Virus record (IMG/VR): IMGVR_UViG_3300030451_006341
Span: 29,510-93,509 of that record
Direction: 5' to 3' (one strand)
Length of the DNA: 64,000 nucleotides
Source of the DNA: a virus
Positions within the stretch are counted from its first letter, which is position 1; every line of letters begins with the position of its first letter. The translations under genes were made by a program, and so were the position numbers. Under the pieces are notes generated by a model that worked only from the letters and a program-made list of their open reading frames with translations, ran no database searches and had not been told where the DNA came from. Of the stretch, positions 42,710-55,627 are shown piece after piece.

Positions 42710-43069
42710 TTAATCTCCTTTGTGAATACGATAGCTATCGCTATCAAAATGTTGTGTAGAAAATTCAAATAATTCAGTATCTTGTAAAGCAATCATTTGG
42801 TGTCTAAGTCCTCTATAAACATGAAAGTTGTCACCAGCTTCTAAAATAAGTTCTTTTGCTAATTTGATATCGTCAAATTCAGAATATTTTACTAAAATTT
42901 TACCAGACTGAATATAAAATACTTCGTCTTTTAAAATATGATAATGCCAAGAGCAGCGCTTTCCTTTAACAAAATATAAAAGCTTACCGCAATATTCTTC
43001 ATTGTTGACGATCCATTTTTCAAATCCCCAACCTTTAGGCACGAATTTCATTTTTAAAGAAGTCTCCAT
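42710..43069 (-). CDS. Cupin-fold sugar-pathway protein
   Basis: A 119-residue single-domain cupin. The first motif is WHYHILKDEVFYIQSGKI (residues about 41-58, with His/Glu metal ligands) and the second DNFHVYRGLRHQMIA. This is the mannose-6-phosphate-isomerase-type cupin seen in many polysaccharide clusters, where it may isomerise a sugar or bind one. ATG 43069 has AAAGGA 7 bases upstream; ATG 43051 with GGAG is also possible. It is the last gene of the glycan island. Confidence 0.75.
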   Translation of the reverse strand: METSLKMKFVPKGWGFEKWIVNNEEYCGKLLYFVKGKRCSWHYHILKDEVFYIQSGKILVKYSEFDDIKLAKELILEAGDNFHVYRGLRHQMIALQDTELFEFSTQHFDSDSYRIHKGD

Positions 43070-43367
43070 CTTTCATTCCTTTGTCATCAATGTATACATC
43101 ACCCGCGGGCTTACCTAAATGTAAACTATGAAATTTTACTCCCCATTCAATTAATTGTTTTCTAGTAAATTCATAAAATGCGCGATTAGCATATCCTGCA
43201 TTATTATTGCTCCTACCCATACCTCTGGCTGTTAAAAAAACAATTGTATTACCATCGTCATATAACTTATTAATCTTTTCTATTCTATCAATATATGGTA
43301 TGGCAAATCCATAGTTTCCATCAGTCAAACTGCATATTGTCCCATCAATATCAAAAACGTAAGTCAC
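43035..43367 (-). CDS. HAD-superfamily sugar-phosphate phosphatase, small
   Basis: A 110-residue minimal HAD hydrolase. Motif I is FDIDGT (residues 5-10), motif II FLTARG, a Lys and motif III/IV-like region KPAGDVYIDDKGM at 86-98. The zinc loop typical of the heptose bisphosphatase GmhB is absent, so it is not a clear GmhB, though it could do the same step. It starts with GTG at 43367, overlapping the previous stop as GTGA, with GGAG 8 bases before. Likely substrate: a sugar phosphate made by the kinase encoded just upstream. Confidence 0.8.
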   Translation of the reverse strand: MTYVFDIDGTICSLTDGNYGFAIPYIDRIEKINKLYDDGNTIVFLTARGMGRSNNNAGYANRAFYEFTRKQLIEWGVKFHSLHLGKPAGDVYIDDKGMKDGDFFKNEIRA

Positions 43368-43756
43368 TTGTTGTTCTCCAGTATATTTGTAGTCGAATAA
43401 TTACCTATTCTATTAAAAAACATTAATTTTTTAGCGTAGTTTTGGCCAACAACTTTTTTACCTTTCCAATCTGAACCAATAACCATTATATCAGGATTGT
43501 TTAATTTTATTAAATTTTCTAATTGTTCTGTTGAATCAAACAACAAAACTTCATCAACATACTTAATGCTTTCAAGGGCAAATTTTCTATCTTCTTGATG
43601 ATTATATGGCCTATTTGGGCCCTTGTCTTTGCTTACTTTAGAGTCTGTGTCTACTCCAACTATAAGCTTATCACCTAAAGATTTAGCATATTTTAACATT
43701 TCAAAGTGGCCGCGGTGCAAAACATCAAAACAACCATTAGTCCATACCACACTCAT
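43364..43756 (-). CDS. Nucleotidyltransferase, HldE C-domain-like (ADP-heptose synthase type)
   Basis: A 130-residue nucleotidyltransferase that would couple a sugar-1-phosphate to a nucleotide. TNGCFDVLHRGHFEMLKYAK carries the HxGH signature (HRGH), and YNHQEDRKFALESIKYVDEV and IMVIGSDWKGKKVVGQ match the HldE/RfaE second domain. ATG 43756 is chosen because it makes an ATGA overlap with the kinase stop; a longer frame to 43798 exists. The kinase and this protein together equal a split HldE. Confidence 0.82.
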   Translation of the reverse strand: MSVVWTNGCFDVLHRGHFEMLKYAKSLGDKLIVGVDTDSKVSKDKGPNRPYNHQEDRKFALESIKYVDEVLLFDSTEQLENLIKLNNPDIMVIGSDWKGKKVVGQNYAKKLMFFNRIGNYSTTNILENNK

Positions 43757-44484
43757 ATTGACGCAACTCCCATTTTTTGAACAACCTTGGTTGAACAATC
43801 ATTAGCAAATTTAATTGATAAATCAATATTGTTAGTTTCACAAAACTTATAACACAACGCAGCTACAAATGTGTCGCCTGCTCCAGATGTATCTTTTACT
43901 TCAACCAAAGGAACATCGTATACTTTATTTTGATATATGCACCCATTTGGTCCTTTAGTAACAATTAGGTTTTTCATTGTTTTGCTAGTCAAATATTGTT
44001 TTGTATTTTCATATTCATAGTGATTAATTTTTATAAAAGTAAATTCAGATGCCCAATCACCTATTATTTTTTTGGTGTCTAAAAAGCTAATACGAGAATG
44101 AACTGAAATATGTCTTAAGTCCTCTTTAGATAAAAAGCCTTTATTATAATCTGATACTACTACTGCATCATATAATTTAAAGTTAATTTCTTGAATATTA
44201 CAAATACCATATTTGTCATCGTTTTCATCTAATCTCATAAACATGTGATTTGTTCTTCTATCAACAAATCTAGTTTTAGTGATGGACTTCCAATTATTGT
44301 TTGTACATATGTTTGGATTTGCGCCCAAAGACTGTAAATTTGCATATACGTTCATAGCCATCCCGCCGTTTTTAATTAATTTTATAGCATTAAAAACAGG
44401 AACAGGGGCTTCAGGACACAGCCTGTTGCACGTTCCATAGTGGAAGATATCATTACAACTTTCTCCGATAACCAAAATCTTCAT
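43753..44484 (-). CDS. PfkB-family sugar kinase, HldE N-domain-like
   Basis: A 243-residue carbohydrate kinase. It opens ILVIGESCNDIFHYGTCNRLCPEAPVPVF, as HldE/RfaE kinases do, and closes with DTSGAGDTFVAAL, the PfkB active-site signature with its catalytic Asp. At 243 residues it is shorter than the usual ~310. It overlaps the nucleotidyltransferase gene by four bases, and the pair matches the two halves of bifunctional HldE. Expected reaction: phosphorylation of heptose-7-phosphate or a related sugar. No isomerase GmhA is present in the window. Confidence 0.82.
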   Translation of the reverse strand: MKILVIGESCNDIFHYGTCNRLCPEAPVPVFNAIKLIKNGGMAMNVYANLQSLGANPNICTNNNWKSITKTRFVDRRTNHMFMRLDENDDKYGICNIQEINFKLYDAVVVSDYNKGFLSKEDLRHISVHSRISFLDTKKIIGDWASEFTFIKINHYEYENTKQYLTSKTMKNLIVTKGPNGCIYQNKVYDVPLVEVKDTSGAGDTFVAALCYKFCETNNIDLSIKFANDCSTKVVQKMGVASI

Positions 44485-45494
44485 CTGCTTAGGTATCTCT
44501 TTCCACTTGAAATATTGTCACGCCAATAATTTAAAAGATCCAACATTGTTTGTTCAAAACTAATTTCAGGTTGCCAGCCAGTATGCTGTTTAAATTTATT
44601 GGTATCAGGAACTTGTAAATCAGCGTCAATAGGTCTTAATCTATCTGGATCAATTTCAACAGTAATGTCATTTCTAGTAGATAGTGATATTAAATAATCT
44701 AGCATGTCTCTGACAGAACAACTAAATGAGCCGCCTATATTATAGTATTCACCAGCAATTGGGTTTTGAGTTACCAACATATAATATGCACGTACAGCAT
44801 CTCTAACATCAGACCATGTTCTAAGTGAGTCAAGATTTCCAACTTTAATAATTGGTTCTTGCAAGCCAGCTTCAATCATTGCAATTTGTTTTGCAAACGT
44901 AGACTCGGCAAATACATCACCACGGCGGGGTCCAGTATGTGTAAACATGCGCGTTGTCATGACTGTCATGCCGTATGCTTCAGCGTAAAAACGCCCAATT
45001 AAGTCAGTGCCAACTTTAGAAATTGCATAGGGAGAAGCAGGGTGAAACGTAATATCTTCATGAATTGGTAAAAACTCTTTTGGCACCCGACCAAACACTT
45101 CTGAAGATGCACAAACGTGGATGATAGGATCTTGATTTAGTTTTTTAATTGCATCAAGAACTTTAGCAGTTCCTAATATGTTTGTCTCTAATGTCTCAAG
45201 TGGCGATTCAAAGCTAGTCTTAGGATAACTTTGGGCAGCTAAATGAAATACATAATCTGGTTTTATTTTATCAAATACATGAAGCATGGAACTTAAATCA
45301 TTAATATCCCCATATTCAACAAATACTCTATCTTTTTTGTTAACTCTGTTCATGAGATGTTCAATGTTATCAGTTTTATCGTTCCATCTCATAAGACCAT
45401 AAACATCCCAATCGGTATTATTCAGCAAAAAATCAGCCAAATGTGATCCAACCATACCAGTAAAGCCAGTTATAAATGCAATTTTATTTGACAT
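44481..45494 (-). CDS. gmd: GDP-mannose 4,6-dehydratase
   Basis: A 337-residue short-chain dehydrogenase that converts GDP-mannose to GDP-4-keto-6-deoxymannose, the entry to fucose, rhamnose and related sugars. The Rossmann motif TGFTGMVGSHLADFLL, the loop HLAAQSYPKTSFESP, the SSEVFG motif and the catalytic YAISK are all intact, and the C-terminal RPIDADLQVPDTNKFKQHTGW is typical. ATG 45494 has AAGGTG close upstream; ATG 45509 is an alternative. It could act on a GDP-heptose instead, given the kinase and nucleotidyltransferase downstream. Confidence 0.88.
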   Translation of the reverse strand: MSNKIAFITGFTGMVGSHLADFLLNNTDWDVYGLMRWNDKTDNIEHLMNRVNKKDRVFVEYGDINDLSSMLHVFDKIKPDYVFHLAAQSYPKTSFESPLETLETNILGTAKVLDAIKKLNQDPIIHVCASSEVFGRVPKEFLPIHEDITFHPASPYAISKVGTDLIGRFYAEAYGMTVMTTRMFTHTGPRRGDVFAESTFAKQIAMIEAGLQEPIIKVGNLDSLRTWSDVRDAVRAYYMLVTQNPIAGEYYNIGGSFSCSVRDMLDYLISLSTRNDITVEIDPDRLRPIDADLQVPDTNKFKQHTGWQPEISFEQTMLDLLNYWRDNISSGKRYLSR

Positions 45495-45993
45495 AATCAC
45501 CTTGCTCATCTCTCATTGACAACACTGGATTACTAATTGGCCACCAAAAATCCCACTCAGGATCGTTCCATTTAATTGTAAACTGTTGACCATCTTCAAA
45601 GTGTGTGTTTTGTTTATAAAAATATACTATATCTTCAAGTGCTAAAATTGAATTACCAATTCCTGATGGTAATAAAAGCATGTTTTTATTTTGTTCACTT
45701 AGTGTAAAAGATTGCCATTTTTTGTATGTTGGCGAATCGGGACGGTTATCTGCTATTAAGGCATAGCCTGCACCTTTCAGTACTGTTACCAATTTAGTGG
45801 TTTTCCAATCACCATGTAGTCCTCTAAGAACACCTTTTCTAGAAATTGATACATCATCTTGGATAAAAACTTCAGACGTGACATCTTTAAAATTTTTAGA
45901 ATCATATAACTCCATATATGAGCCACGATGATCTTCAAACCTATCAGGGATTATTAATTTAACACCATGTAGTTTAGTATCCAAAACTTGCAT
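45484..45993 (-). CDS. RmlC-like nucleotide-sugar 3,5-epimerase
   Basis: A 169-residue cupin epimerase of the dTDP-4-dehydrorhamnose 3,5-epimerase type. VLRGLHGDWKTTKLV contains the catalytic His, and DNRPDSPTYKKWQSFTLSEQN and LLLPSGIGNSILAL are family blocks. The usual AHGF stretch is changed to GNSI. Lying between the dehydratase and an epimerase/reductase, it probably works on a 4-keto-6-deoxy sugar made by Gmd. It overlaps Gmd by 11 bases and shares one base with the upstream epimerase. Confidence 0.85.
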   Translation of the reverse strand: MQVLDTKLHGVKLIIPDRFEDHRGSYMELYDSKNFKDVTSEVFIQDDVSISRKGVLRGLHGDWKTTKLVTVLKGAGYALIADNRPDSPTYKKWQSFTLSEQNKNMLLLPSGIGNSILALEDIVYFYKQNTHFEDGQQFTIKWNDPEWDFWWPISNPVLSMRDEQGDYVK

Positions 45994-46979
45994 TAATCTT
46001 TCCGTGTAAAATAATTGTTTCTTTTTTTATACAAATCTTGATTATTTAAAAACCACTCTAAAGTTTCTTGAATGCCTTCTTGTAGGCTTGTTGAGCACTT
46101 AAAACCATGTGATTGAGCGCGAGAGGTGTCCATAAGACGACGAGCATCACCTTTTGGCTTACTGGTGTCCCATTCAATTTGTATACTAGTATTATAACAG
46201 TTTCTAATAGATTCTGCAACATCTTTTATTGAAACACCATCACCGCTTCCTAGATTAACTGGTTCTGTTATGCCGTTTTCGACCATGTGAATCATACCAT
46301 CTGCGCAGTCTCCAGCATAAATAAAGTCTCTAATTGGTGTACCATCTCCCCAGCAAACGAGCGGTGATTCACCAGATACAATTCTGTTTATTAACGAAGG
46401 GATAACCATAGCGTTTTCTGGATCAAAATTATCCCATTTGCCATAAACATTAGCAGGTCGCACAATTGAAATATTGTCTTTTCCATATTGGATTTTGTAT
46501 GCATCAGCTTGTAATTCGCCTATTCGTTTCGCCCATCCAGGATGCTTATCGTTATCAGATGGGAAGGTGGTCCACACATCATCTTCTTTAAAGACTTCTG
46601 CAGGATGGTAGACCCCAACAGAACTTGTATATAAATACCAGTCTACATTACAACGCATAGCTGCTTCCATCATAGCTGTGTTAAACATTAACATTGGAAC
46701 CATAAAGCTTGCTGGTCTCTCTCTGGACATTTTGGGAGAACCTTTGATGCCAATCAAATTAAAGACGTAATTTTGACCTTCGCATGCCTTTATGCAATTT
46801 TGCAAAACAGTTAAATCTAACTTCATAAATTTAACCGAGTCGGGCAATCCCTCGGGCTCATCAAGAGATACAACAGTAACCTCACAGTTTTTTTCCAATA
46901 ACTTATCAACTAAGTAGCGGCCTATCATTCCCGTACCACCAGTGACAAGAACTTTTTTATTTTCTAAATTATTAATCAT
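45993..46979 (-). CDS. NAD-dependent epimerase/reductase, GDP-fucose-synthase-like, catalytic Tyr absent
   Basis: A 328-residue extended SDR. The NAD(P)-binding loop is TGGTGMIGRYLVDKLL, followed by YVFNLIGIKGS, TSSVGVY and RPANVYGKWDNFDPENAMVIPSLI, as in GDP-fucose synthases. In place of the YxxxK Tyr there is Pro (P147 G-W-A-K151). The paralogue at 50341 has the same change at the same position. It could still be an epimerase using another acid, or have lost redox activity. Gene context puts it with Gmd, RmlC-like and methyltransferase genes. Confidence 0.85.
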   Translation of the reverse strand: MINNLENKKVLVTGGTGMIGRYLVDKLLEKNCEVTVVSLDEPEGLPDSVKFMKLDLTVLQNCIKACEGQNYVFNLIGIKGSPKMSRERPASFMVPMLMFNTAMMEAAMRCNVDWYLYTSSVGVYHPAEVFKEDDVWTTFPSDNDKHPGWAKRIGELQADAYKIQYGKDNISIVRPANVYGKWDNFDPENAMVIPSLINRIVSGESPLVCWGDGTPIRDFIYAGDCADGMIHMVENGITEPVNLGSGDGVSIKDVAESIRNCYNTSIQIEWDTSKPKGDARRLMDTSRAQSHGFKCSTSLQEGIQETLEWFLNNQDLYKKRNNYFTRKD

Positions 46980-47751: not shown

Positions 47752-48855
47752 TTATTTTTGCCAAACTAATGCTGGTATTTTTTTGTCCCAACCAAAGGCT
47801 ATAACCCAAGCCCAAAATCTTAGTCTTCCTTCAATGAGATCAAATTGTTGATTGTTTACTTCTTTAAGTCTGATGGGCTTTAGAAATATTCCTTGTTTCA
47901 TTTCTTCAGATAATTCTACAGGAGAGGGTGTCATATTCATTTTGTTTTCAATTGCCTCTTCCACTGTTTGGTATACTTTTCGATTATAGTCATTAGACAC
48001 TCTAATTTGTTTTGTATCAATATTTTTTACAGGAGTTACAAATTTTTCAGACATCAAATTAAGATCATCTTTTGTTACTTTTAAATTTGCAGCTTCTGCG
48101 TTTTGTCTAGCGCGCAATGGCTTTGATGTATTCGGTATTACCATAACATTTGGGTTGTTGATTAACCATCTTAACACTAATTGGCCAGTAGTGCAATTAT
48201 ATTTTTTTGACAGTTGTGTTAGAATTTTAAGCTGCTCAGTACCATTAACCATTTTTCCTTGTGCTAATGGGCTATATGCTATTAATTTTACATCATTTTT
48301 TTTGCAAAAAGGTAGCACATTTTTTTCTATGGAGCGTTCAAAAAAATTATATTCTACCTGTAAAGTACTAAGGCTATTATTTTTTAGTGATAGTATAGCA
48401 TTCTCAGTTTCATTTATCAAAAAGTTACTAACTCCAATTTGTTTAATTTTACCATCTAAAACTAATTTTTCCATCGCTTCCATTGTTTCGCTAATAGGAA
48501 CATTTGGGTTAGGCCAGTGGACCTGGAATAAATCAATTACATCGGTCTGTAGTCTTTTTAGGCTTTGTTCAGCAGATTTTATTACGCCATTAAATGTAGT
48601 ATCATTTGGCGAAACCTTTGTTGCTAAATAAACATTGTGCCTGCCTATTCGTTTTAAAATTTGACCTAAAGCAGCCTCAGATGCACCATTACCATAAACT
48701 GGTGCTGTATCTATAAAATTAATGCCACTATCAAGAGATACTTTTATTGTCTCTTCTAAGCTATTGCCACTTTCATTTTCGGGCAAATGAAATCCTGTGC
48801 CAAAACCAATAGCAGATATTGGTGTGTCATCATTATTTATTTTACGATATATCAT
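47752..48855 (-). CDS. Aldo/keto reductase fused to ParB/Srx-like domain (AKR1)
   Basis: A 367-residue two-domain protein. Residues 1-272 are an aldo/keto reductase with the full catalytic set: D49, Y54, K80 and H113 (FIDTAPVYGNG, YLATK, FQVHW). Residues about 276-366 follow the ParB/Srx pattern: KQIRVSNDYNRKVY, then MTPSPVELSEEM, LKPIRL, FDLIEGRLRFWAW with the GxxR box at 343-346, and KKIPALV. ParB/Srx domains bind or hydrolyse nucleotides in several families. ATG 48855 is used; the frame extends to a TTG at 48864. Role in sugar reduction is inferred from the cluster. Confidence 0.8.
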   Translation of the reverse strand: MIYRKINNDDTPISAIGFGTGFHLPENESGNSLEETIKVSLDSGINFIDTAPVYGNGASEAALGQILKRIGRHNVYLATKVSPNDTTFNGVIKSAEQSLKRLQTDVIDLFQVHWPNPNVPISETMEAMEKLVLDGKIKQIGVSNFLINETENAILSLKNNSLSTLQVEYNFFERSIEKNVLPFCKKNDVKLIAYSPLAQGKMVNGTEQLKILTQLSKKYNCTTGQLVLRWLINNPNVMVIPNTSKPLRARQNAEAANLKVTKDDLNLMSEKFVTPVKNIDTKQIRVSNDYNRKVYQTVEEAIENKMNMTPSPVELSEEMKQGIFLKPIRLKEVNNQQFDLIEGRLRFWAWVIAFGWDKKIPALVWQK

Positions 48856-49939
48856 TGAAAACAAAAGCCTCTATTTTTTTTCTATTGCAAATTTTCCAAG
48901 CCCAATACTTTTTAATCTCAGAAAAATAATAATCATCTAAAATTTTATATTTACCATTTTTAAAAACAGTTCTTAATGGTGGTAGTTCGAAATTGTTTTT
49001 TAATCTTTCTGCTAAAAGCTGTGGGCTAGGAATTAAATCGTCTTTGTTGTCTATTGCTTGTTTGAAAGTAATGTAGCAACGCTCGTCAATTAATACGTCG
49101 TCAATATTTATTAAATTTTTTTTTGTACCAAACGATTGTTCTAACGTGCGACAATCATTAACCGATAAGTTTATTTTTGTAGACTTTAAATTTTGTGCTA
49201 AGTGATCGTCATTCATTGTTCTAATAATGGAAACTACATTTTTTTGTAAAACCCAAGCTAGCATTAACTGATGGATTGTGCAATTGTGTTTTGTTGTTAG
49301 TGATAAAATTTCAGGACTAAATTTTATTTTTTTACCTTGCAAAAAAGGACTATACGCTAAAAACAAATGATTGTTTTTATTGCAAAACGGTATGACTTTT
49401 TTAAGAGATTCTTTTTGTAACAAATTAAATTCGTTTTCTACAACAAAAAAATCATTTTTGTTTTTTTTATCAAACTCGTTAATCTCTGAGAACACTGCAT
49501 TGCCTATTCCATATGCTTTTATTTTACCTTGTTTTTTGAACTCTTTTAAGGATTCTATTAATTCTTGCACAGGAATTTCAGGATTACGCCAATGAGATAA
49601 GTAAAAATCTATGTAATCAGTATTTAATCTTTTTAAACTGTTATTTAAAGATGCTTGTAAATCTTTTTTGTGTGAATTTCTAGCATTAAACTTTGAACAT
49701 ATTATAGCCTGTTCTCGCCTGTTTCGTAGTGCTATACCCAATATTTCTTCAGAATAGCCACCACCGTAAAGCTCAGCTGTATCAAACATGTTAATGCCCA
49801 TATCCATAGCTTTATGGTAAAAGTAAATTCTTTTATTTACCGTATCCTCGGTATTACTGTGCTTATTGCCTGTTTTATTAACACCTAATGCTATTTGTGA
49901 GACTTTTTTATCTAAATTTTTTAAATAGATATAATCCAT
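48842..49939 (-). CDS. Aldo/keto reductase with degenerate ParB-like C-terminus (AKR2)
   Basis: A 365-residue paralogue of AKR1. The reductase part keeps D53, Y58, K83 and H116 (MFDTAELYGGG, IICSK, LSHWRNP). The C-terminal 90 residues align with the AKR1 ParB-like domain (YITFKQAIDNKDDLIPSP, LPPLRTV, YKILDD, KKYWAWKI, KKIEAFVF), but the GxxR box is lost (DYYFSEIKK where AKR1 has IEGRLRF). It begins directly after the stop of the small helical protein and overlaps AKR1 by 14 bases. The pair may form a heteromer with one active ParB-like site. Confidence 0.78.
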   Translation of the reverse strand: MDYIYLKNLDKKVSQIALGVNKTGNKHSNTEDTVNKRIYFYHKAMDMGINMFDTAELYGGGYSEEILGIALRNRREQAIICSKFNARNSHKKDLQASLNNSLKRLNTDYIDFYLSHWRNPEIPVQELIESLKEFKKQGKIKAYGIGNAVFSEINEFDKKNKNDFFVVENEFNLLQKESLKKVIPFCNKNNHLFLAYSPFLQGKKIKFSPEILSLTTKHNCTIHQLMLAWVLQKNVVSIIRTMNDDHLAQNLKSTKINLSVNDCRTLEQSFGTKKNLINIDDVLIDERCYITFKQAIDNKDDLIPSPQLLAERLKNNFELPPLRTVFKNGKYKILDDYYFSEIKKYWAWKICNRKKIEAFVFNDIS

Positions 49940-50344
49940 TTAAATACTTGGCTCCCATCCTTTTAAACCATCAGTATCAAAATTGCTCCTAACTAAGCTT
50001 TTTTCTTTATCACCAAATTCTTCTAATAAAATATTTTTCATTCTATTACGAACACCATTAATTTGGTGAGCTAATTTTAGTAATTCATCGTATCTTTCTT
50101 CATCATCTTGCATTTTGTCTTTAATATACCATATATGTACATTAATTTGCGACAAAACCATTAATACTCTTAATAGTCTTGAGTTTAAAACTATTTTTTT
50201 ATCTTGTATTAACATATCAATATCATGTGACAGTTTATCTATTTCTTCAGTAATGCTTTTGTTGTCATCAAAAAGCATCTCTTTTATTTGATCTACAGCC
50301 AATCTATCTATTAGTTCAGCAGCAGGCAATACAAATTTTCTCAT
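49940..50344 (-). CDS. Small helical protein, paired with an epimerase (copy B)
   Basis: A 134-residue all-helical protein of unknown function. It is paralogous to the 137-residue protein at 55214: both have ELIDRLxxxQxKE near residue 10, a DIDxxxxxxxxxLxS heptad stretch, VLxQxNxHIW, and GxRNxxKN. It starts at an ATGA overlap with the epimerase at 50341 and ends directly before AKR2. Because each copy adjoins an epimerase, it may be a partner of that enzyme. I do not recognise the family. Confidence 0.7.
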   Translation of the reverse strand: MRKFVLPAAELIDRLAVDQIKEMLFDDNKSITEEIDKLSHDIDMLIQDKKIVLNSRLLRVLMVLSQINVHIWYIKDKMQDDEERYDELLKLAHQINGVRNRMKNILLEEFGDKEKSLVRSNFDTDGLKGWEPSI

Positions 50345-51321
50345 ATTTTAACTCCTTTTAGCCTTGCAAGTTCTGGATTATTATAAATCCAATCAAATGT
50401 TTCTTTAATTCCTTGCTCTAATGAATATTTTTGTTTAAAGTTTAATAATTTACGGGCCCTATCCATGTTCATAATTCTAATCGGATCACCTGATGGCTTT
50501 GTTATATCCCATGTAATTTCAATGTCATCTGAATAGACCTTACAAATTGTTTCAGCGGCATCTTTTATAGAAGCCCCTGTTCCTGAGCCTAGATTTATTG
50601 GTGTACAAGCTGGCGCATTAATCATTGCTTCCAGCATCCAATACGCTACCTCTTTTGAATAAGTAAAATCTCTTATTGCTGAACCATCACCCCACACATT
50701 TAAAGGATTTTCGCCACCTAAAACTCTTGACATTAGGGATGGCAATACTTGAGCAGTAGCTGGATTAAAATCATCAAATGGTCCATATACATTACTTGGT
50801 CTTAATATTTTTACTGCATCCCATCCATACTCTTTAAGATACGTTTCACCTTGAATTTCACCAATTCTTTTTGCTAATCCAGGAATTCTATCATTTTGTT
50901 TTGGCATGCCATTCCATGCATTGTCTTCAAAATGTTCTGAGGCCTGTGGATATATACAAACACTGCTAACAAACATATACCCAGAGGCTTCAGATTTAAA
51001 TGCTGCATCCATTAACTCTGTTTGAAACCTAAGCATAGGAACAAAATAACTTGCAACTTTTGTTTCACCAATACCAACTGAGCCTTTAATACCAACTAAA
51101 TTAAAAACATAGTCCATGCCTTTGCATACTTTTAGACAATTGGATTGCTTAGTTAAATCTAATCGCTGAAAATTTACATCTCCTAATACTAACTTTGCAT
51201 ATTCAGGAGTATCCATGGACACTACTTTAATATTTGCGCCTTTTTGCTGCAGCATTTTAACTAGTGGTACACCAATTGTGCCAGTCCCACCAGCAACTAA
51301 TACTTTTTTTCCAGAATACAT
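50341..51321 (-). CDS. NAD-dependent epimerase/reductase, GDP-fucose-synthase-like, catalytic Tyr absent (paralogue 2)
   Basis: A 326-residue extended SDR, close paralogue of the one at 45993: VLVAGGTGTIGVPLVKML, YVFNLVGIKGS, VSSVCIYP and LRPSNVYGPFDDFNPATAQVLPS. The YxxxK Tyr position is Pro (P147-G-L-A-K151), as in the paralogue. ATG 51321 with AAGGAA upstream is chosen; the longer frame to 51372 runs into the transketolase gene. It may act on a different sugar or form a heterodimer with the other copy. Confidence 0.85.
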   Translation of the reverse strand: MYSGKKVLVAGGTGTIGVPLVKMLQQKGANIKVVSMDTPEYAKLVLGDVNFQRLDLTKQSNCLKVCKGMDYVFNLVGIKGSVGIGETKVASYFVPMLRFQTELMDAAFKSEASGYMFVSSVCIYPQASEHFEDNAWNGMPKQNDRIPGLAKRIGEIQGETYLKEYGWDAVKILRPSNVYGPFDDFNPATAQVLPSLMSRVLGGENPLNVWGDGSAIRDFTYSKEVAYWMLEAMINAPACTPINLGSGTGASIKDAAETICKVYSDDIEITWDITKPSGDPIRIMNMDRARKLLNFKQKYSLEQGIKETFDWIYNNPELARLKGVKI

Positions 51322-51328
51322 AATTTCC

Positions 51329-52243
51329 TTAGTGTATAAAACTTTTAATTTTTTTAATAATAGAAGACTCATCTATGTTAGCAATCTTGTGTAACATCTC
51401 TCGATCTCCAAAACTAAAATAAAATTTATTTTCTAATGCAATGCTTAAAACATTTTTTGTGTGATTGTTTTCTTTTAATAAACAAAATATTTTTTCCGCG
51501 ATTCCGCCGCTTTTAATATTTTCTTCAACAACTATGACGTTTTTATTCTTGGTAAATTTTAATATATCTTCTATTGGAAGAGGATTTATCCTAAAAATAT
51601 CCATATGTGCTAAATTAATATTATCTTGTTCTAATGATTGTAACACATTAACAATTTTTTGTGTCATAAAACCAGATGATATTATAACATTGTTGGCTTG
51701 TCGTTCGTTAATAATTTTATGACCTATGGAGATATCATCATTATCAACATATATTCTAGGTAATTTGCCCTTTTCAATTCTAAAATACTTTGGGCCACTC
51801 TGTTTGTATGAAAGCTCTGCAAGTTTTTTGGTGCTTATATCATCTGTAACATTATAAACTTGTAAATTTGGTAAGTTTATCATTGCAGACAAATCTTGCA
51901 CACCTTGATGTGTGGGCCCATCAGTACTATATGTAAACCCTGCGCCAACTCCAATTATATTTACATCTAAATTCATGGCACATAAATCTATATTTATTTG
52001 CTCCAAGACTCTTAAAGAAACAAAATTATTAATTGCATAAACATATACTTTTTTACCACATTTAGCCAAACCAGCAGCAACGCTTATTAAAGCTTGTTCA
52101 GCAATACCAACATTGATATATTGTTCGGGGTAGGCTTCTTCAATTTTTTTTAAGCCAAATGCACCATGATCAGCTGTGAGGATTACAGTATTTTTATCTT
52201 TAGCAATAATATGATGTAATTCGTCAAAGAACGCATCTCTCAT
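51329..52243 (-). CDS. Transketolase-like, C-terminal subunit (pyrimidine-binding and C domains)
   Basis: A 304-residue protein with the transketolase pyrimidine domain (MRDAFFDELHHIIA, NVGIAEQALISVAAGLA with the catalytic Glu, STDGPTHQGVQDLSAM) and the C-terminal domain (IIERINPLP-like, VIVVEENIKSGGIAEKI). Together with the next gene it makes a split transketolase, which transfers two-carbon units between sugar phosphates or related donors. ATG 52243 gives the canonical MRDAF start but has no ribosome site; TTG 52270 would add nine residues and overlap the upstream gene. Confidence 0.85.
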   Translation of the reverse strand: MRDAFFDELHHIIAKDKNTVILTADHGAFGLKKIEEAYPEQYINVGIAEQALISVAAGLAKCGKKVYVYAINNFVSLRVLEQINIDLCAMNLDVNIIGVGAGFTYSTDGPTHQGVQDLSAMINLPNLQVYNVTDDISTKKLAELSYKQSGPKYFRIEKGKLPRIYVDNDDISIGHKIINERQANNVIISSGFMTQKIVNVLQSLEQDNINLAHMDIFRINPLPIEDILKFTKNKNVIVVEENIKSGGIAEKIFCLLKENNHTKNVLSIALENKFYFSFGDREMLHKIANIDESSIIKKIKSFIH

Positions 52244-52262
52244 ATCAACTATATTTTGTACA

Positions 52263-53069
52263 TTATCCAATTTCTTTGAGAGCCTTTTCTAATGTTTCAT
52301 CTGTAATAGCTCCGTGGTGCCAATTACTTTGATTTTCCATAAAACTAACACCTTTACCTTTGACAGTATTTGCTATAATAGCGGTTGGTTTTGATGAATG
52401 TAAATCTGTTAAAGAGTCTGATATTTGTTGTAAATTATGGCCGTCAATATCAATAACGTTCCAACCAAATGATTTTAATCTTTTGTCTAAAGGGTCAAGT
52501 GGATGAATATGCTCGGTATTACCGTGAATACACAGTCTATTTCGGTCAATAATTGTAACTAAATTTGATAATTTAAGACGCGGAGCCAAACTCATAGCTT
52601 CCCATATTGAGCCTTCTCCGCACTCTCCATCACCTAAAATTACATATGTTGTGTAATCTTGCCTATTCATTTTTGCTGCCAATGCAAACCCAACAGCGAC
52701 ACTTAATCCGTGTCCTAATGAGCCAGATATAAACTCAATACCTGGTATATTGGTGTCAGGGTGTTCACCAAGTATTCCACCTTGATTCATTTTAAACAAT
52801 TCATCTTCACTAAAGAAACCCAAATCATTTAATATTACATATTGCGCGATACAAGCATGACCCTTACTAAGAATAAATCTGTTACGATTGGGGTCAGTAA
52901 TATTTTTAGTGCTTATATTTAAAATATTTTTATAGTAAAGAACACTTAGAACATCAATACATGAGAAAGCACCTCCGACGTGTCCTTTCCCAACATGATT
53001 TATAACTTTAAGAATTTTTTTGCGATGTTCTTTAGTTTTTTTTTCTATTTGTTCAAAACTTAAATTCAT
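52263..53069 (-). CDS. Transketolase-like, N-terminal subunit (thiamine-diphosphate domain)
   Basis: A 268-residue protein that holds the diphosphate-binding half of a transketolase: SKGHACIAQYVIL, SGSLGHGLSVAVGFALAA and the ThDP/Mg motif GDGECGEGSIWEA (146-158) with N177. The length is normal for split bacterial and archaeal transketolases. It starts with an ATGA overlap behind the E1-beta-like gene. If it acts as a true transketolase it could provide sedoheptulose-7-phosphate for the heptose-type kinase in the same island; a role in making a branched or ketose sugar is equally possible. Confidence 0.88.
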   Translation of the reverse strand: MNLSFEQIEKKTKEHRKKILKVINHVGKGHVGGAFSCIDVLSVLYYKNILNISTKNITDPNRNRFILSKGHACIAQYVILNDLGFFSEDELFKMNQGGILGEHPDTNIPGIEFISGSLGHGLSVAVGFALAAKMNRQDYTTYVILGDGECGEGSIWEAMSLAPRLKLSNLVTIIDRNRLCIHGNTEHIHPLDPLDKRLKSFGWNVIDIDGHNLQQISDSLTDLHSSKPTAIIANTVKGKGVSFMENQSNWHHGAITDETLEKALKEIG

Positions 53070-53599
53070 TGATTGTAATATTCTCCATACTCAACCAATA
53101 ATGTAGATTTGCTGTCTTCTCGTTCTAAGGCTTTTTTATAAGCAGGAAAAATATCTTCTTTATTTTCAAGTAAAACTACTTCAACATTCTCTAACAGATG
53201 TCTAAAAGCCTCTGTATGATCTTTTGTATGTTGTACCCCACCATTTAAAGGAACTTTAGCACCAATTGAAGTTCTTACGATAACACGCGGTTTAAATGTT
53301 CCACGAGTCATTTCTTCCATTTTATCTAAATGATTTACAAGTTGATTTACTGCTAGTAACAAAAAATCAAATCGTGGATAACAAGTGACTGGAACAAATC
53401 CTTCCATTGCTAGACCAATTGATAAGCCCATTTGTGTTTCTTCAAACACTGGGGTTTCTATCTTTCTTTCATTAGGAATCGTTTTTAGAGTATTGTAAAT
53501 AGAGTTGCCGCTATAAGCAACTGATTGGCCGATAAATATTGCTCTCGGGTCCTCTGCTAAAAATTCCATAGATTTTACTAAATGTTCTACGTACTTCAT
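53066..53599 (-). CDS. Dehydrogenase E1-beta-like thiamine enzyme subunit, short
   Basis: A 177-residue protein matching only the pyrimidine-binding domain of E1 beta subunits: IFIGQSVAYSGNSIY, PVFEETQMGLSIGLAMEGFVPV with the catalytic Glu, then VRTSIGAKVPLNGGVQHTKDH. The usual C-terminal domain (about 130 residues) is missing, and the frame is intact, so this is not a frameshift. ATG 53599 with TAGGAG just upstream is chosen. Its partner is encoded 8 bases upstream. No E2 or E3 gene is seen, so a decarboxylase or carboligase role fits better than an oxidative complex. Confidence 0.82.
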   Translation of the reverse strand: MKYVEHLVKSMEFLAEDPRAIFIGQSVAYSGNSIYNTLKTIPNERKIETPVFEETQMGLSIGLAMEGFVPVTCYPRFDFLLLAVNQLVNHLDKMEEMTRGTFKPRVIVRTSIGAKVPLNGGVQHTKDHTEAFRHLLENVEVVLLENKEDIFPAYKKALEREDSKSTLLVEYGEYYNQ

Positions 53600-53607
53600 T
53601 TTTTCTC

Positions 53608-54249
53608 CTAAAATAAAATCCATTGGCCTGTGCCATGGTGAGGGTATCCTCTTTCATATGAATAATAAAAAACATCATTTGGAAAATGACTTTTAACACC
53701 ATTCCACGTTTCACTAGTCGGAGTATTAGTGCTCATATCGTTATCTTCGATTACAAATTCTAACGGCAAATTATGTCTCCGAGAGTATTTATAAGCTTCA
53801 TGAAACCCGCCAGTTTCAGCAGTCATGTCTCCTACAAACACCCAAACTTTGCGGCCTGTGTTTTTTAATTTTTGTGCTTTAGCAGCACCTAACGCAATTG
53901 GGATAACCCCACCTACAATTGAAGATGTATATAGTTTTGGTTTTTCACAATATACACTCATGCTTTTACCAGCTACAATGAGTTCCCATAAATGTTCTTC
54001 AGGTACACCATGTAACAAAGAATGATAATGATTTCTCCATGATGAAAAAACCCAATCTTCTGGGTGAACATATTTAAAAATTTCTATCAGTTGTTCTTCG
54101 TTTCCTTTAGACATATGTACAGGTCCCGATATTGTAGCTTTCTCATACTCTTCTTTTACTCTTAATTCAAAATTTATAAGGTCTTGAGCTGTTAAGGAAA
54201 CCTCTCTAGTTTCTTGAGTTTTAAATTTTTCGGGAATATATAAATTCAT
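53608..54249 (-). CDS. Dehydrogenase E1-alpha-like thiamine enzyme subunit, short
   Basis: A 213-residue subunit with the E1-alpha core: VFSSWRNHYHSLLHGVPEEHL, YTSSIVGGVIPIALGAAKA, and the ThDP/Mg motif VGDMTAETGGFHEA (139-152) with N170. The normal family length is about 320, so the protein is reduced to the core. With the E1-beta-like partner it probably forms a small ThDP enzyme which handles a 2-oxo acid or a keto sugar. It lies 4 bases from the epimerase at 54254. Confidence 0.82.
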   Translation of the reverse strand: MNLYIPEKFKTQETREVSLTAQDLINFELRVKEEYEKATISGPVHMSKGNEEQLIEIFKYVHPEDWVFSSWRNHYHSLLHGVPEEHLWELIVAGKSMSVYCEKPKLYTSSIVGGVIPIALGAAKAQKLKNTGRKVWVFVGDMTAETGGFHEAYKYSRRHNLPLEFVIEDNDMSTNTPTSETWNGVKSHFPNDVFYYSYERGYPHHGTGQWILF

Positions 54250-55213: not shown

Positions 55214-55627
55214 TTATTTACTCCAACTAATTTCCCAATCTTTAAATTCTGCTGCTAAACAATCAATTTTGTAATCTTTGCGACCGCCAGCAACTTCTTG
55301 AATTTTATTTTTGGCTGTATTTCGAATACCGTTCAAACCATGAGTTAACTCAAGATTATTGCCGTCCTTAATGCCTTTGCGATAATTTGATTCATTATGC
55401 CATATGTGTAAGTTCATTTGAGCTAATACAATAATTGCTCTAACAGTATCACTATCTAATATAACATTTTCTTCTTTAAGTGTCAAATCAATATCGTGTA
55501 AAATATCAGAAATTTCACTACCATATTCATCTTTGTGTTCAGTAATAAACACTTCTTTTAGTTGAACAATTGATAGTCTATCAATTAACTCAGAGAGAGT
55601 TGGTAAATATTTTCTTTTTTCGTTCAT
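55214..55627 (-). CDS. Small helical protein, paired with an epimerase (copy A)
   Basis: A 137-residue helical protein, paralogue of the one at 49940 (ELIDRLSIVQLKEVF, DILHDIDLTLKEEN, IVLAQMNLHIWHN, GLNGIRNTAKNK). No catalytic motif is evident; conserved Asp, Arg, His and Asn residues are lined up along helices. It touches the genes on both sides with no gap. The family is unknown to me; the recurring link with epimerases suggests a helper or accessory subunit in nucleotide-sugar processing. Confidence 0.7.
   Translation of the reverse strand: MNEKRKYLPTLSELIDRLSIVQLKEVFITEHKDEYGSEISDILHDIDLTLKEENVILDSDTVRAIIVLAQMNLHIWHNESNYRKGIKDGNNLELTHGLNGIRNTAKNKIQEVAGGRKDYKIDCLAAEFKDWEISWSK

What the first reader, a model, noticed from the sequence alone, without database searches (positions are those of the whole stretch)
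47752..49939. Tandem aldo/keto reductases fused to a ParB/Srx-like domain
AKR1 has a complete aldo/keto reductase (D49, Y54, K80, H113) and then about 90 residues following the ParB/Srx order: a strand with Arg-Val, a helix, a strand ending in PIRL, LIEGRLRFWAW with the GxxR box, and KKIPALV. ParB/Srx domains are known CTP switches in ParB and an ATP-dependent serine kinase in SbnI/SerK. In a glycan island this could be a nucleotide-gated or bifunctional kinase-reductase for a sugar. I know of no described enzyme of this form, especially in a phage.
Basis: partly seen in the sequence, partly recalled or inferred. Interest (0 to 1): 0.85.

Follow-up and report, generated by a model that had tools for sequence, protein, structure and literature searches.

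The report
Sugar reductase carrying ParB-type nucleotide domain
A tailed phage carries, inside a borrowed sugar-building gene cassette, an aldo/keto reductase permanently joined to a small domain of the kind that in ParB binds nucleotides; the same joined enzyme occurs in scattered bacteria of more than ten phyla and appears not to have been described.

Summary
AKR1 (47752-48864, minus strand) is a complete aldo/keto reductase with a C-terminal ~95-residue ParB/sulfiredoxin-fold domain. Four tests agree: Pfam ParB_N hits 22 of 34 related tails (best 9e-6); the tail profile finds only ParB/Noc in the PDB; its AlphaFold model (pLDDT 88) matches ParB, Noc, KorB, Srx, SbnI, SerK or PadC in nearly all of its 50 best PDB hits; and hhalign against six chromosomal ParBs gives 96.7%. 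In 496 genomes searched with the tail profile, the six weak extra hits examined were all ParB.

It is not phage-specific. The fusion is present in five phage lineages and 30 bacterial genomes of more than ten phyla, in glycan cassettes (split transketolase, sugar epimerases, RmlC-like epimerase, TylF-like methyltransferase). The tandem partner AKR2 carries the same domain with its phosphate motif GxxR changed to ExxK; this altered-tail paralogue is also found in bacteria.

Most likely AKR1 reduces a ketone on a nucleotide-activated, probably branched, sugar, and the ParB-type domain binds the nucleotide part of the substrate or senses a nucleotide. Nucleotide binding is not shown. A kinase role has no support beyond the fold; sulfiredoxin chemistry is excluded. 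A new variant of a known kind (ParB-fold fusion enzymes).

The parts
47752..48864 (-). AKR1: aldo/keto reductase with C-terminal ParB/Srx-fold domain, 370 aa from TTG (probable start ATG at 48855, 367 aa)
   Evidence: full-length AF2 model pLDDT 92.4, pTM 0.90
48040..48855 (-). AKR1 catalytic (beta/alpha)8 domain, tetrad D52 Y57 K83 H116 (TTG numbering)
   Evidence: Pfam Aldo_ket_red E 2e-62; best PDB folds 4pmj and Tm1743 5dan, 34% identity to 5dan; tetrad 38/38
47755..48039 (-). AKR1 ParB/Srx-fold domain (residues 276-370)
47875..47925 (-). Box I (C motif) equivalent: helix SPVELSEEMKQ and loop GIFLKP
   Evidence: in the loop K is at least 90% conserved and P invariant in 34 tails; motif definition from PMC12704722
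47818..47829 (-). Box II (P motif) GRLR = GxxR
   Evidence: the final Arg invariant in 34 tails, Gly at least 90%; this Arg to Ala abolishes NTP binding in studied ParB-fold proteins (PMC12704722)
48842..49939 (-). AKR2: tandem paralogue with intact tetrad
48845..49123 (-). AKR2 ParB/Srx-like domain with Box II altered (SEIKKYWAW, ExxK)
   Evidence: profile E 4.5e-11, and 5.4e-11 with a profile built without the window, L001 and L007
46982..47815 (-). TylF-like / Methyltransf_24-like methyltransferase, in the same neighbourhood as AKR1 in 32 of 35 loci
45993..46979 (-). NAD-dependent sugar epimerase/reductase, GDP-L-fucose synthase-like
45484..45993 (-). RmlC-like dTDP-4-keto-6-deoxysugar 3,5-epimerase family protein
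   Evidence: Pfam PF00908 E 1.3e-42; fused to AKR-ParB in L029
44481..45509 (-). GDP-mannose 4,6-dehydratase-like sugar dehydratase
49940..50344 (-). small conserved cassette protein without a known family
   Evidence: in 19 of 35 loci; no Pfam family at the cut-off and no NCBIfam match
50341..51372 (-). NAD-dependent sugar epimerase/dehydratase
51329..53069 (-). split transketolase: C-terminal part 51329-52270, N-terminal part 52263-53069
53066..54249 (-). E1-beta-like and E1-alpha-like ThDP pair (alpha-keto acid dehydrogenase type)

Best explanation
AKR1 is an NAD(P)H-dependent ketoreductase of a mobile cassette that builds an unusual, probably ThDP-branched, nucleotide-activated sugar for a surface glycan. 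Its C-terminal ParB/Srx-fold domain is a nucleotide-binding module attached where AKRs carry their C-terminal substrate-specificity loop. It most likely holds the nucleotide moiety of the NDP-sugar substrate, through Box I for the base and the GxxR of Box II for the phosphates, so that the sugar ketone reaches the AKR active site. AKR2 is an old paralogue with an altered phosphate motif (GxxR to ExxK), probably a partner subunit or the enzyme for a neighbouring step. Shown here: the architecture, the fold, motif conservation, the cassette, and bacterial relatives of the phage gene. Inferred: nucleotide binding, the NDP-sugar as ligand, and the ketone of a two-carbon branch as substrate.
For: Fold. 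Blind specificity test: in 496 genomes of two phyla the tail profile hits AKR fusions and otherwise only weak matches, nearly all to the Box I-Box II stretch; all six examined carry the ParB GERR motif, and in the two read in full they lie beside parA. Motif conservation: the Box II Arg is invariant and the Box I loop K-P nearly so in 34 tails, and the tail is more conserved than the AKR domain in every AKR1 comparison (for example 86% against 64% with L001). Sugar context: cassette conserved across phyla; RmlC-like domain fused to AKR-ParB in L029; Pfam of the H. mobile cassette. ThDP precedent: E1-type enzymes and split transketolases add or are proposed to add two-carbon branches to keto sugars, and the decarboxylase YerE does so on a CDP-sugar (PMC12247030); an AKR, Pau7, reduces such a branch ketone (PMC4753412). 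Other ParB-fold fusion enzymes bind ATP, GTP or CTP through this site (PMC12704722).
Against: No nucleotide binding has been measured. In the 2025 survey 17 of 28 purified ParB-fold proteins bound none of the four NTPs in vitro, and no ParB-fold domain is known to me to bind NDP-sugars. I could not inspect coordinates, so the distance between the two sites is unknown. Many AKRs act on sugars without such a domain. The conservation comparison is biased because the tail was the search seed.
Confidence: 0.42

Rival explanations
1. Nucleotide gate: the ParB/Srx domain binds a free NTP (ATP, CTP or GTP) and switches the reductase on or off, or changes its oligomeric state, coupling the glycan pathway to nucleotide supply.
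For: ParB-fold fusions to other enzymes (methyltransferase, acetyltransferase) bind ATP or GTP (PMC12704722). The Box I loop G-x-F-L-K-P resembles the ATP-binder loop GFFKP cited there (the authors call the trend unreliable). Box I and Box II are intact in AKR1.
Against: Box III, part of ParB's phosphate site, is absent because the protein ends after the last strand. No regulatory logic for a sugar AKR is evident.
Confidence: 0.27
2. Scaffold: the domain is a structural or dimerisation module that joins AKR1 to AKR2 or to the neighbouring methyltransferase, with nucleotide binding vestigial or purely structural.
For: AKR2 keeps the fold but has lost GxxR and lies directly upstream of AKR1 in the tandem loci. 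The tandem pair is old: AKR1 and AKR2 separate on one branch with 83/97 support.
Against: GxxR is strictly conserved in AKR1 across many phyla, which is not expected of a vestigial site. Many loci have AKR1 without a detected AKR2.
Confidence: 0.2
3. Bifunctional kinase-reductase: the domain phosphorylates a sugar or another small molecule, as SerK and SbnI phosphorylate serine.
For: Shared fold; SbnI and SerK are among the PDB matches (5ujd E 4e-3, 5x0j E 0.019).
Against: ParB and Noc match better by structure and are the only sequence matches. Separate sugar kinase candidates already sit in these loci (PfkB-type in the window, GHMP-kinase-like cluster in 17 of 35 loci). SerK catalytic residues could not be aligned with confidence.
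Confidence: 0.07
4. The tail is an ordinary AKR C-terminal loop or an unrelated fold.
For: Single-sequence Pfam score is below the curated cut-off (18.9 against 26.3 bits).
Against: all return ParB/Srx; the solved AKRs listed match only the first ~285 profile positions.
Confidence: 0.02

Closest known systems
ParB-CTPase-fold fusion proteins (ParB_N PF02195; Kaljevic et al., PNAS 2025, PMC12704722)
   Same: Same fold, Box I and Box II GxxR; a ParB-fold domain fused to an enzyme.
   Different: Partner is an aldo/keto reductase, not named in that paper's main text; the domain is C-terminal, lacks Box III, and lies in a glycan cassette. Tails mostly match PF02195 weakly (the window's is below its cut-off), so a PF02195 survey would tend to miss them.
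Canonical ParB / Noc / Spo0J
   Same: N-terminal domain fold; best sequence and structure match.
   Different: No HTH, no C-terminal dimerisation domain, no Box III.
SerK / SbnI free serine kinases and sulfiredoxin
   Same: Same superfamily fold.
   Different: The catalytic Cys of Srx (GCHR, from general knowledge) is Arg or another residue here (GRxR); SerK catalytic residues not demonstrated.
Pau7, AKR5I branch ketoreductase of paulomycin (PMC4753412)
   Same: AKR that reduces a two-carbon branch ketone on a sugar.
   Different: Pau7 acts on the glycosylated antibiotic; a ParB-type domain is not mentioned in the passages read. Pathway similarity is inferred from gene content only.
Stand-alone AKRs such as Tm1743 (5dan) and 4pmj
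   Same: Closest solved structures of the AKR domain, 30-34% identity.
   Different: Lack the ParB-type domain.

Membership tests
Aldo/keto reductase superfamily | (beta/alpha)8 fold and Asp-Tyr-Lys-His tetrad | tested here: met
   tetrad 38/38
Aldo/keto reductase superfamily | NAD(P)H-dependent carbonyl reduction | not testable with these tools
   needs assay
ParB/Srx (ParB-CTPase) fold | overall fold and sequence relation to ParB_N | tested here: met
ParB/Srx (ParB-CTPase) fold | Box I helix and loop, Box II GxxR | tested here: met
   conserved in the AKR1-type tails; not met in AKR2 of the window
ParB/Srx (ParB-CTPase) fold | NTP binding | not testable with these tools
   DRaCALA or ITC needed
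Canonical ParB | Box III phosphate motif, HTH and C-terminal dimerisation domain | tested here: not met
   protein ends after the last strand of the domain
Sulfiredoxin | catalytic Cys in the GCHR motif | tested here: not met
   position is Arg in the window and not Cys in any aligned relative; motif itself from general knowledge
SerK/SbnI kinase | catalytic acidic residue and phosphoryl transfer | tested here: inconclusive
   fold similarity only; catalytic residues not aligned
NDP-sugar-modifying glycan cassette | co-located dehydratase, epimerase, RmlC-like and transketolase genes | tested here: met

The most novel reading that the evidence does not exclude
A class of sugar reductases in which a ParB/Srx-fold domain acts as an NDP-sugar docking domain, a ligand class not known for this fold, with an ancient paralogue pair in which one partner keeps and the other has altered the phosphate motif, spread across many phyla and carried by phages.
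Probability: 0.33. Interest if true: 0.8.

Novelty: new variant of a known kind. Interest (0 to 1): 0.6.

Why it matters
ParB's CTP-binding domain was long tied to chromosome segregation. A conserved fusion to a metabolic reductase, in glycan cassettes of more than ten phyla and in phages, would move the fold further into small-molecule metabolism and give a testable system: is the nucleotide a switch, or a handle on the substrate? It also suggests why such proteins are overlooked: the tail matches the curated ParB_N model only weakly, so automatic annotation calls them plain aldo/keto reductases.

Tried and rejected
Ordinary AKR C-terminal loop: rejected. Phage invention of the fusion: rejected, since the phage AKR1 clade (window, L001, L007) lies inside a supported group with Nitrospirota, Chloroflexota, Gemmatimonadota and Actinomycetota proteins; L009 and L010 branch elsewhere, but a single phage clade is not rejected (AU p = 0.18), so one or several transfers are possible. 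Fusion in sequenced isolate phages: none found. Acinetobacter plasmid hit with 96% coverage (H41): an ordinary AKR without the tail. First genome scan with three tails found nothing, its patterns being too narrow. Sulfiredoxin chemistry: rejected for lack of the Cys. An interface analysis was not possible because model coordinates are not exposed.

Full report
Observation. The minus-strand ORFs are as described: AKR1 at 47752-48864 and AKR2 at 48842-49939, overlapping at their junction. Both are complete aldo/keto reductases by Pfam (E 2e-62 and 5e-54), and both keep the Asp-Tyr-Lys-His tetrad, as do all 38 family members aligned.

The AKR1 tail is a ParB/Srx-fold domain. Alone it gives ParB_N as first Pfam hit (E 1.6e-3, under the curated cut-off); the homologous L007 tail gives 3.9e-4. 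Of 34 homologous tails, 22 hit ParB_N, best 9.2e-6, with no competing family in more than two. A profile of these tails against PDB sequences finds six chains, all ParB, Noc or Spo0J, though at modest E-values (best 0.006). Profile-profile comparison with six chromosomal ParBs gives probability 96.7%, E 3.5e-10; these ParBs were themselves found with the tail profile, so this is confirmation rather than an independent draw. AlphaFold2 on the tail alignment gives pLDDT 88.3 and pTM 0.80. Nearly all of the 50 best Foldseek matches in the PDB are ParB, Noc, KorB, PadC, sulfiredoxin, SbnI or SerK, and the named viral matches in BFVD are mostly ParB/sulfiredoxin proteins. The full-length model has pLDDT 92.4 and pTM 0.90 with no disordered linker, which suggests a fixed arrangement of the two domains; I could not see coordinates or the predicted aligned error.

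Specificity of the profile. In 496 genomes drawn from two phyla (246 and 250), the strong hits were the AKR fusions in the two centre genomes, plus one partial hit in the first of them that is a broken AKR2-type tail (below). The rest were weak hits (E 1e-4 to 1e-3), nearly all on profile positions 45-104, in ORFs of about 270-330 aa. Six were examined and all carry the ParB GERR motif; the two read in full lie beside parA. So the nearest relatives of the tail outside AKRs, at this sensitivity, are ParBs. The sample also suggests that the fusion is rare.

Distribution. Scans of viral contigs gave the fusion in L001/L002, L007, L009 (548-kb contig) and L010, besides the window. One genome scan with the tail alignment gave 30 bacterial loci, in Nitrospirota, Patescibacteria lineages, Chloroflexota, Verrucomicrobiota, Actinomycetota, Bacteroidota, Bacillota (Heliobacterium mobile), Gemmatimonadota, Planctomycetota, Myxococcota, Thermodesulfobacteriota, Omnitrophota and Pseudomonadota (names from record titles and, 78 lineages; most are metagenome-assembled). 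All 30 tails are C-terminal to an AKR. The scan patterns required [LVI]R[YF]WAWVI or NRxxYxT-like words, so the family is undersampled and the WAWVI conservation is partly built in. Isolate phage genomes contain no match to the tail. The window's own record is a genuine tailed phage: terminase, portal and prohead protease, with closest terminases in Flavobacterium phages at 47% identity.

Cassette. Across 35 loci the AKR-ParB gene shares its neighbourhood with a TylF-like methyltransferase (32 loci), sugar epimerases (33), a split transketolase N part (27), a small protein of unknown family (19), an RmlC-like epimerase (17), a GHMP-kinase-like protein (17) and E1-like subunits (14) (single-linkage clusters, so some merge related families, and names outside the window and L023 rest on the representative). 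In L029 the RmlC-like domain is fused to AKR-ParB. The window adds an HldE-like kinase and a cytidylyltransferase-like protein. The cultured H. mobile locus has the same parts plus a B12 radical-SAM protein between the small protein and AKR2.

Two paralogues. AKR2 carries the same domain (profile E 4.5e-11; 5.4e-11 when the profile omits the window, L001 and L007) but its GxxR is replaced: SEIKK in the window, GELKK in Levybacteria, DHVKK in a myxococcal genome, and DQVKK in a Nitrospirales genome where the AKR2-type gene is broken by a frameshift. AKR1 and AKR2 types separate on one branch (83/97), so the pair is probably older than its spread. Forcing the named AKR2 rows into one clade is not rejected (p 0.32). 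In the tandem loci AKR2 lies directly upstream of AKR1; in L011 it is in the same cassette but not adjacent.

How it may work. In studied ParB-fold proteins Box I contacts the base and Box II the phosphates, and changing the Box II Arg to Ala abolishes NTP binding (PMC12704722). AKR1 keeps both boxes: the Arg is invariant in 34 tails and the consensus Box I loop is G-x-F-L-K-P. Box III is absent, as in many non-canonical members. The cassette points to nucleotide-activated sugars with ThDP-dependent branching: E1-type enzymes add acetyl branches to keto sugars, the decarboxylase YerE does so on a CDP-sugar, and split transketolases are proposed to add hydroxyacetyl (PMC12247030); an AKR, Pau7, reduces such a branch ketone (PMC4753412). 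From these I infer that AKR1 reduces a ketone of an NDP-sugar and that the ParB-type domain binds the nucleotide end of that substrate. The equally simple alternative, a free-NTP gate, cannot be separated from it by sequence; the 2025 survey found that neither sequence nor AlphaFold3 predicts nucleotide choice. The kinase idea has only the fold behind it.

Novelty. ParB-fold fusions to enzymes are a known kind since that survey. The AKR fusion is not in its main text (its supplements could not be read here) or in other papers found. I call it a new variant of a known kind.

Noticed in passing
window 49940-50344 and 55214-55627: Small helical protein (~135 aa, ELIDRLSxxQIKE...LNGIRN) recurs one to three times in 19 of 35 AKR-ParB loci across phyla; no confident match to a Pfam or NCBIfam family.
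   Followed up: partly
L029:7170-8822: Triple fusion AKR - ParB/Srx - RmlC-like epimerase in an Omnitrophota genome.
   Followed up: partly
L011:12674-13823: AKR2-type gene split by a frameshift between the AKR part and the ParB-type tail (DQVKKYWAW); could be an assembly error.
   Followed up: partly
window 43035-43798 and L007:10299-11006: Cytidylyltransferase-like and HAD-like (by eye) proteins are separate genes in the window but one fused gene in the related phage L007.
   Followed up: no
window 51329-54249: Two different ThDP heterodimers side by side: E1-alpha/beta-like pair and split transketolase, suggesting C-branched sugar synthesis in a phage.
   Followed up: partly
L023:4121-6001: B12-binding radical SAM protein inside the Heliobacterium mobile cassette, between the small protein and AKR2.
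   Followed up: no
L001:718-3302: Ketopantoate hydroxymethyltransferase-like and acetolactate synthase-like ORFs (by eye, from sequence) upstream of the transketolase genes in a phage contig.
   Followed up: no
L010:791-11234: At least eight tandem paralogous glycosyltransferase-like genes (237-274 aa) flank AKR-ParB in this phage contig.
   Followed up: no
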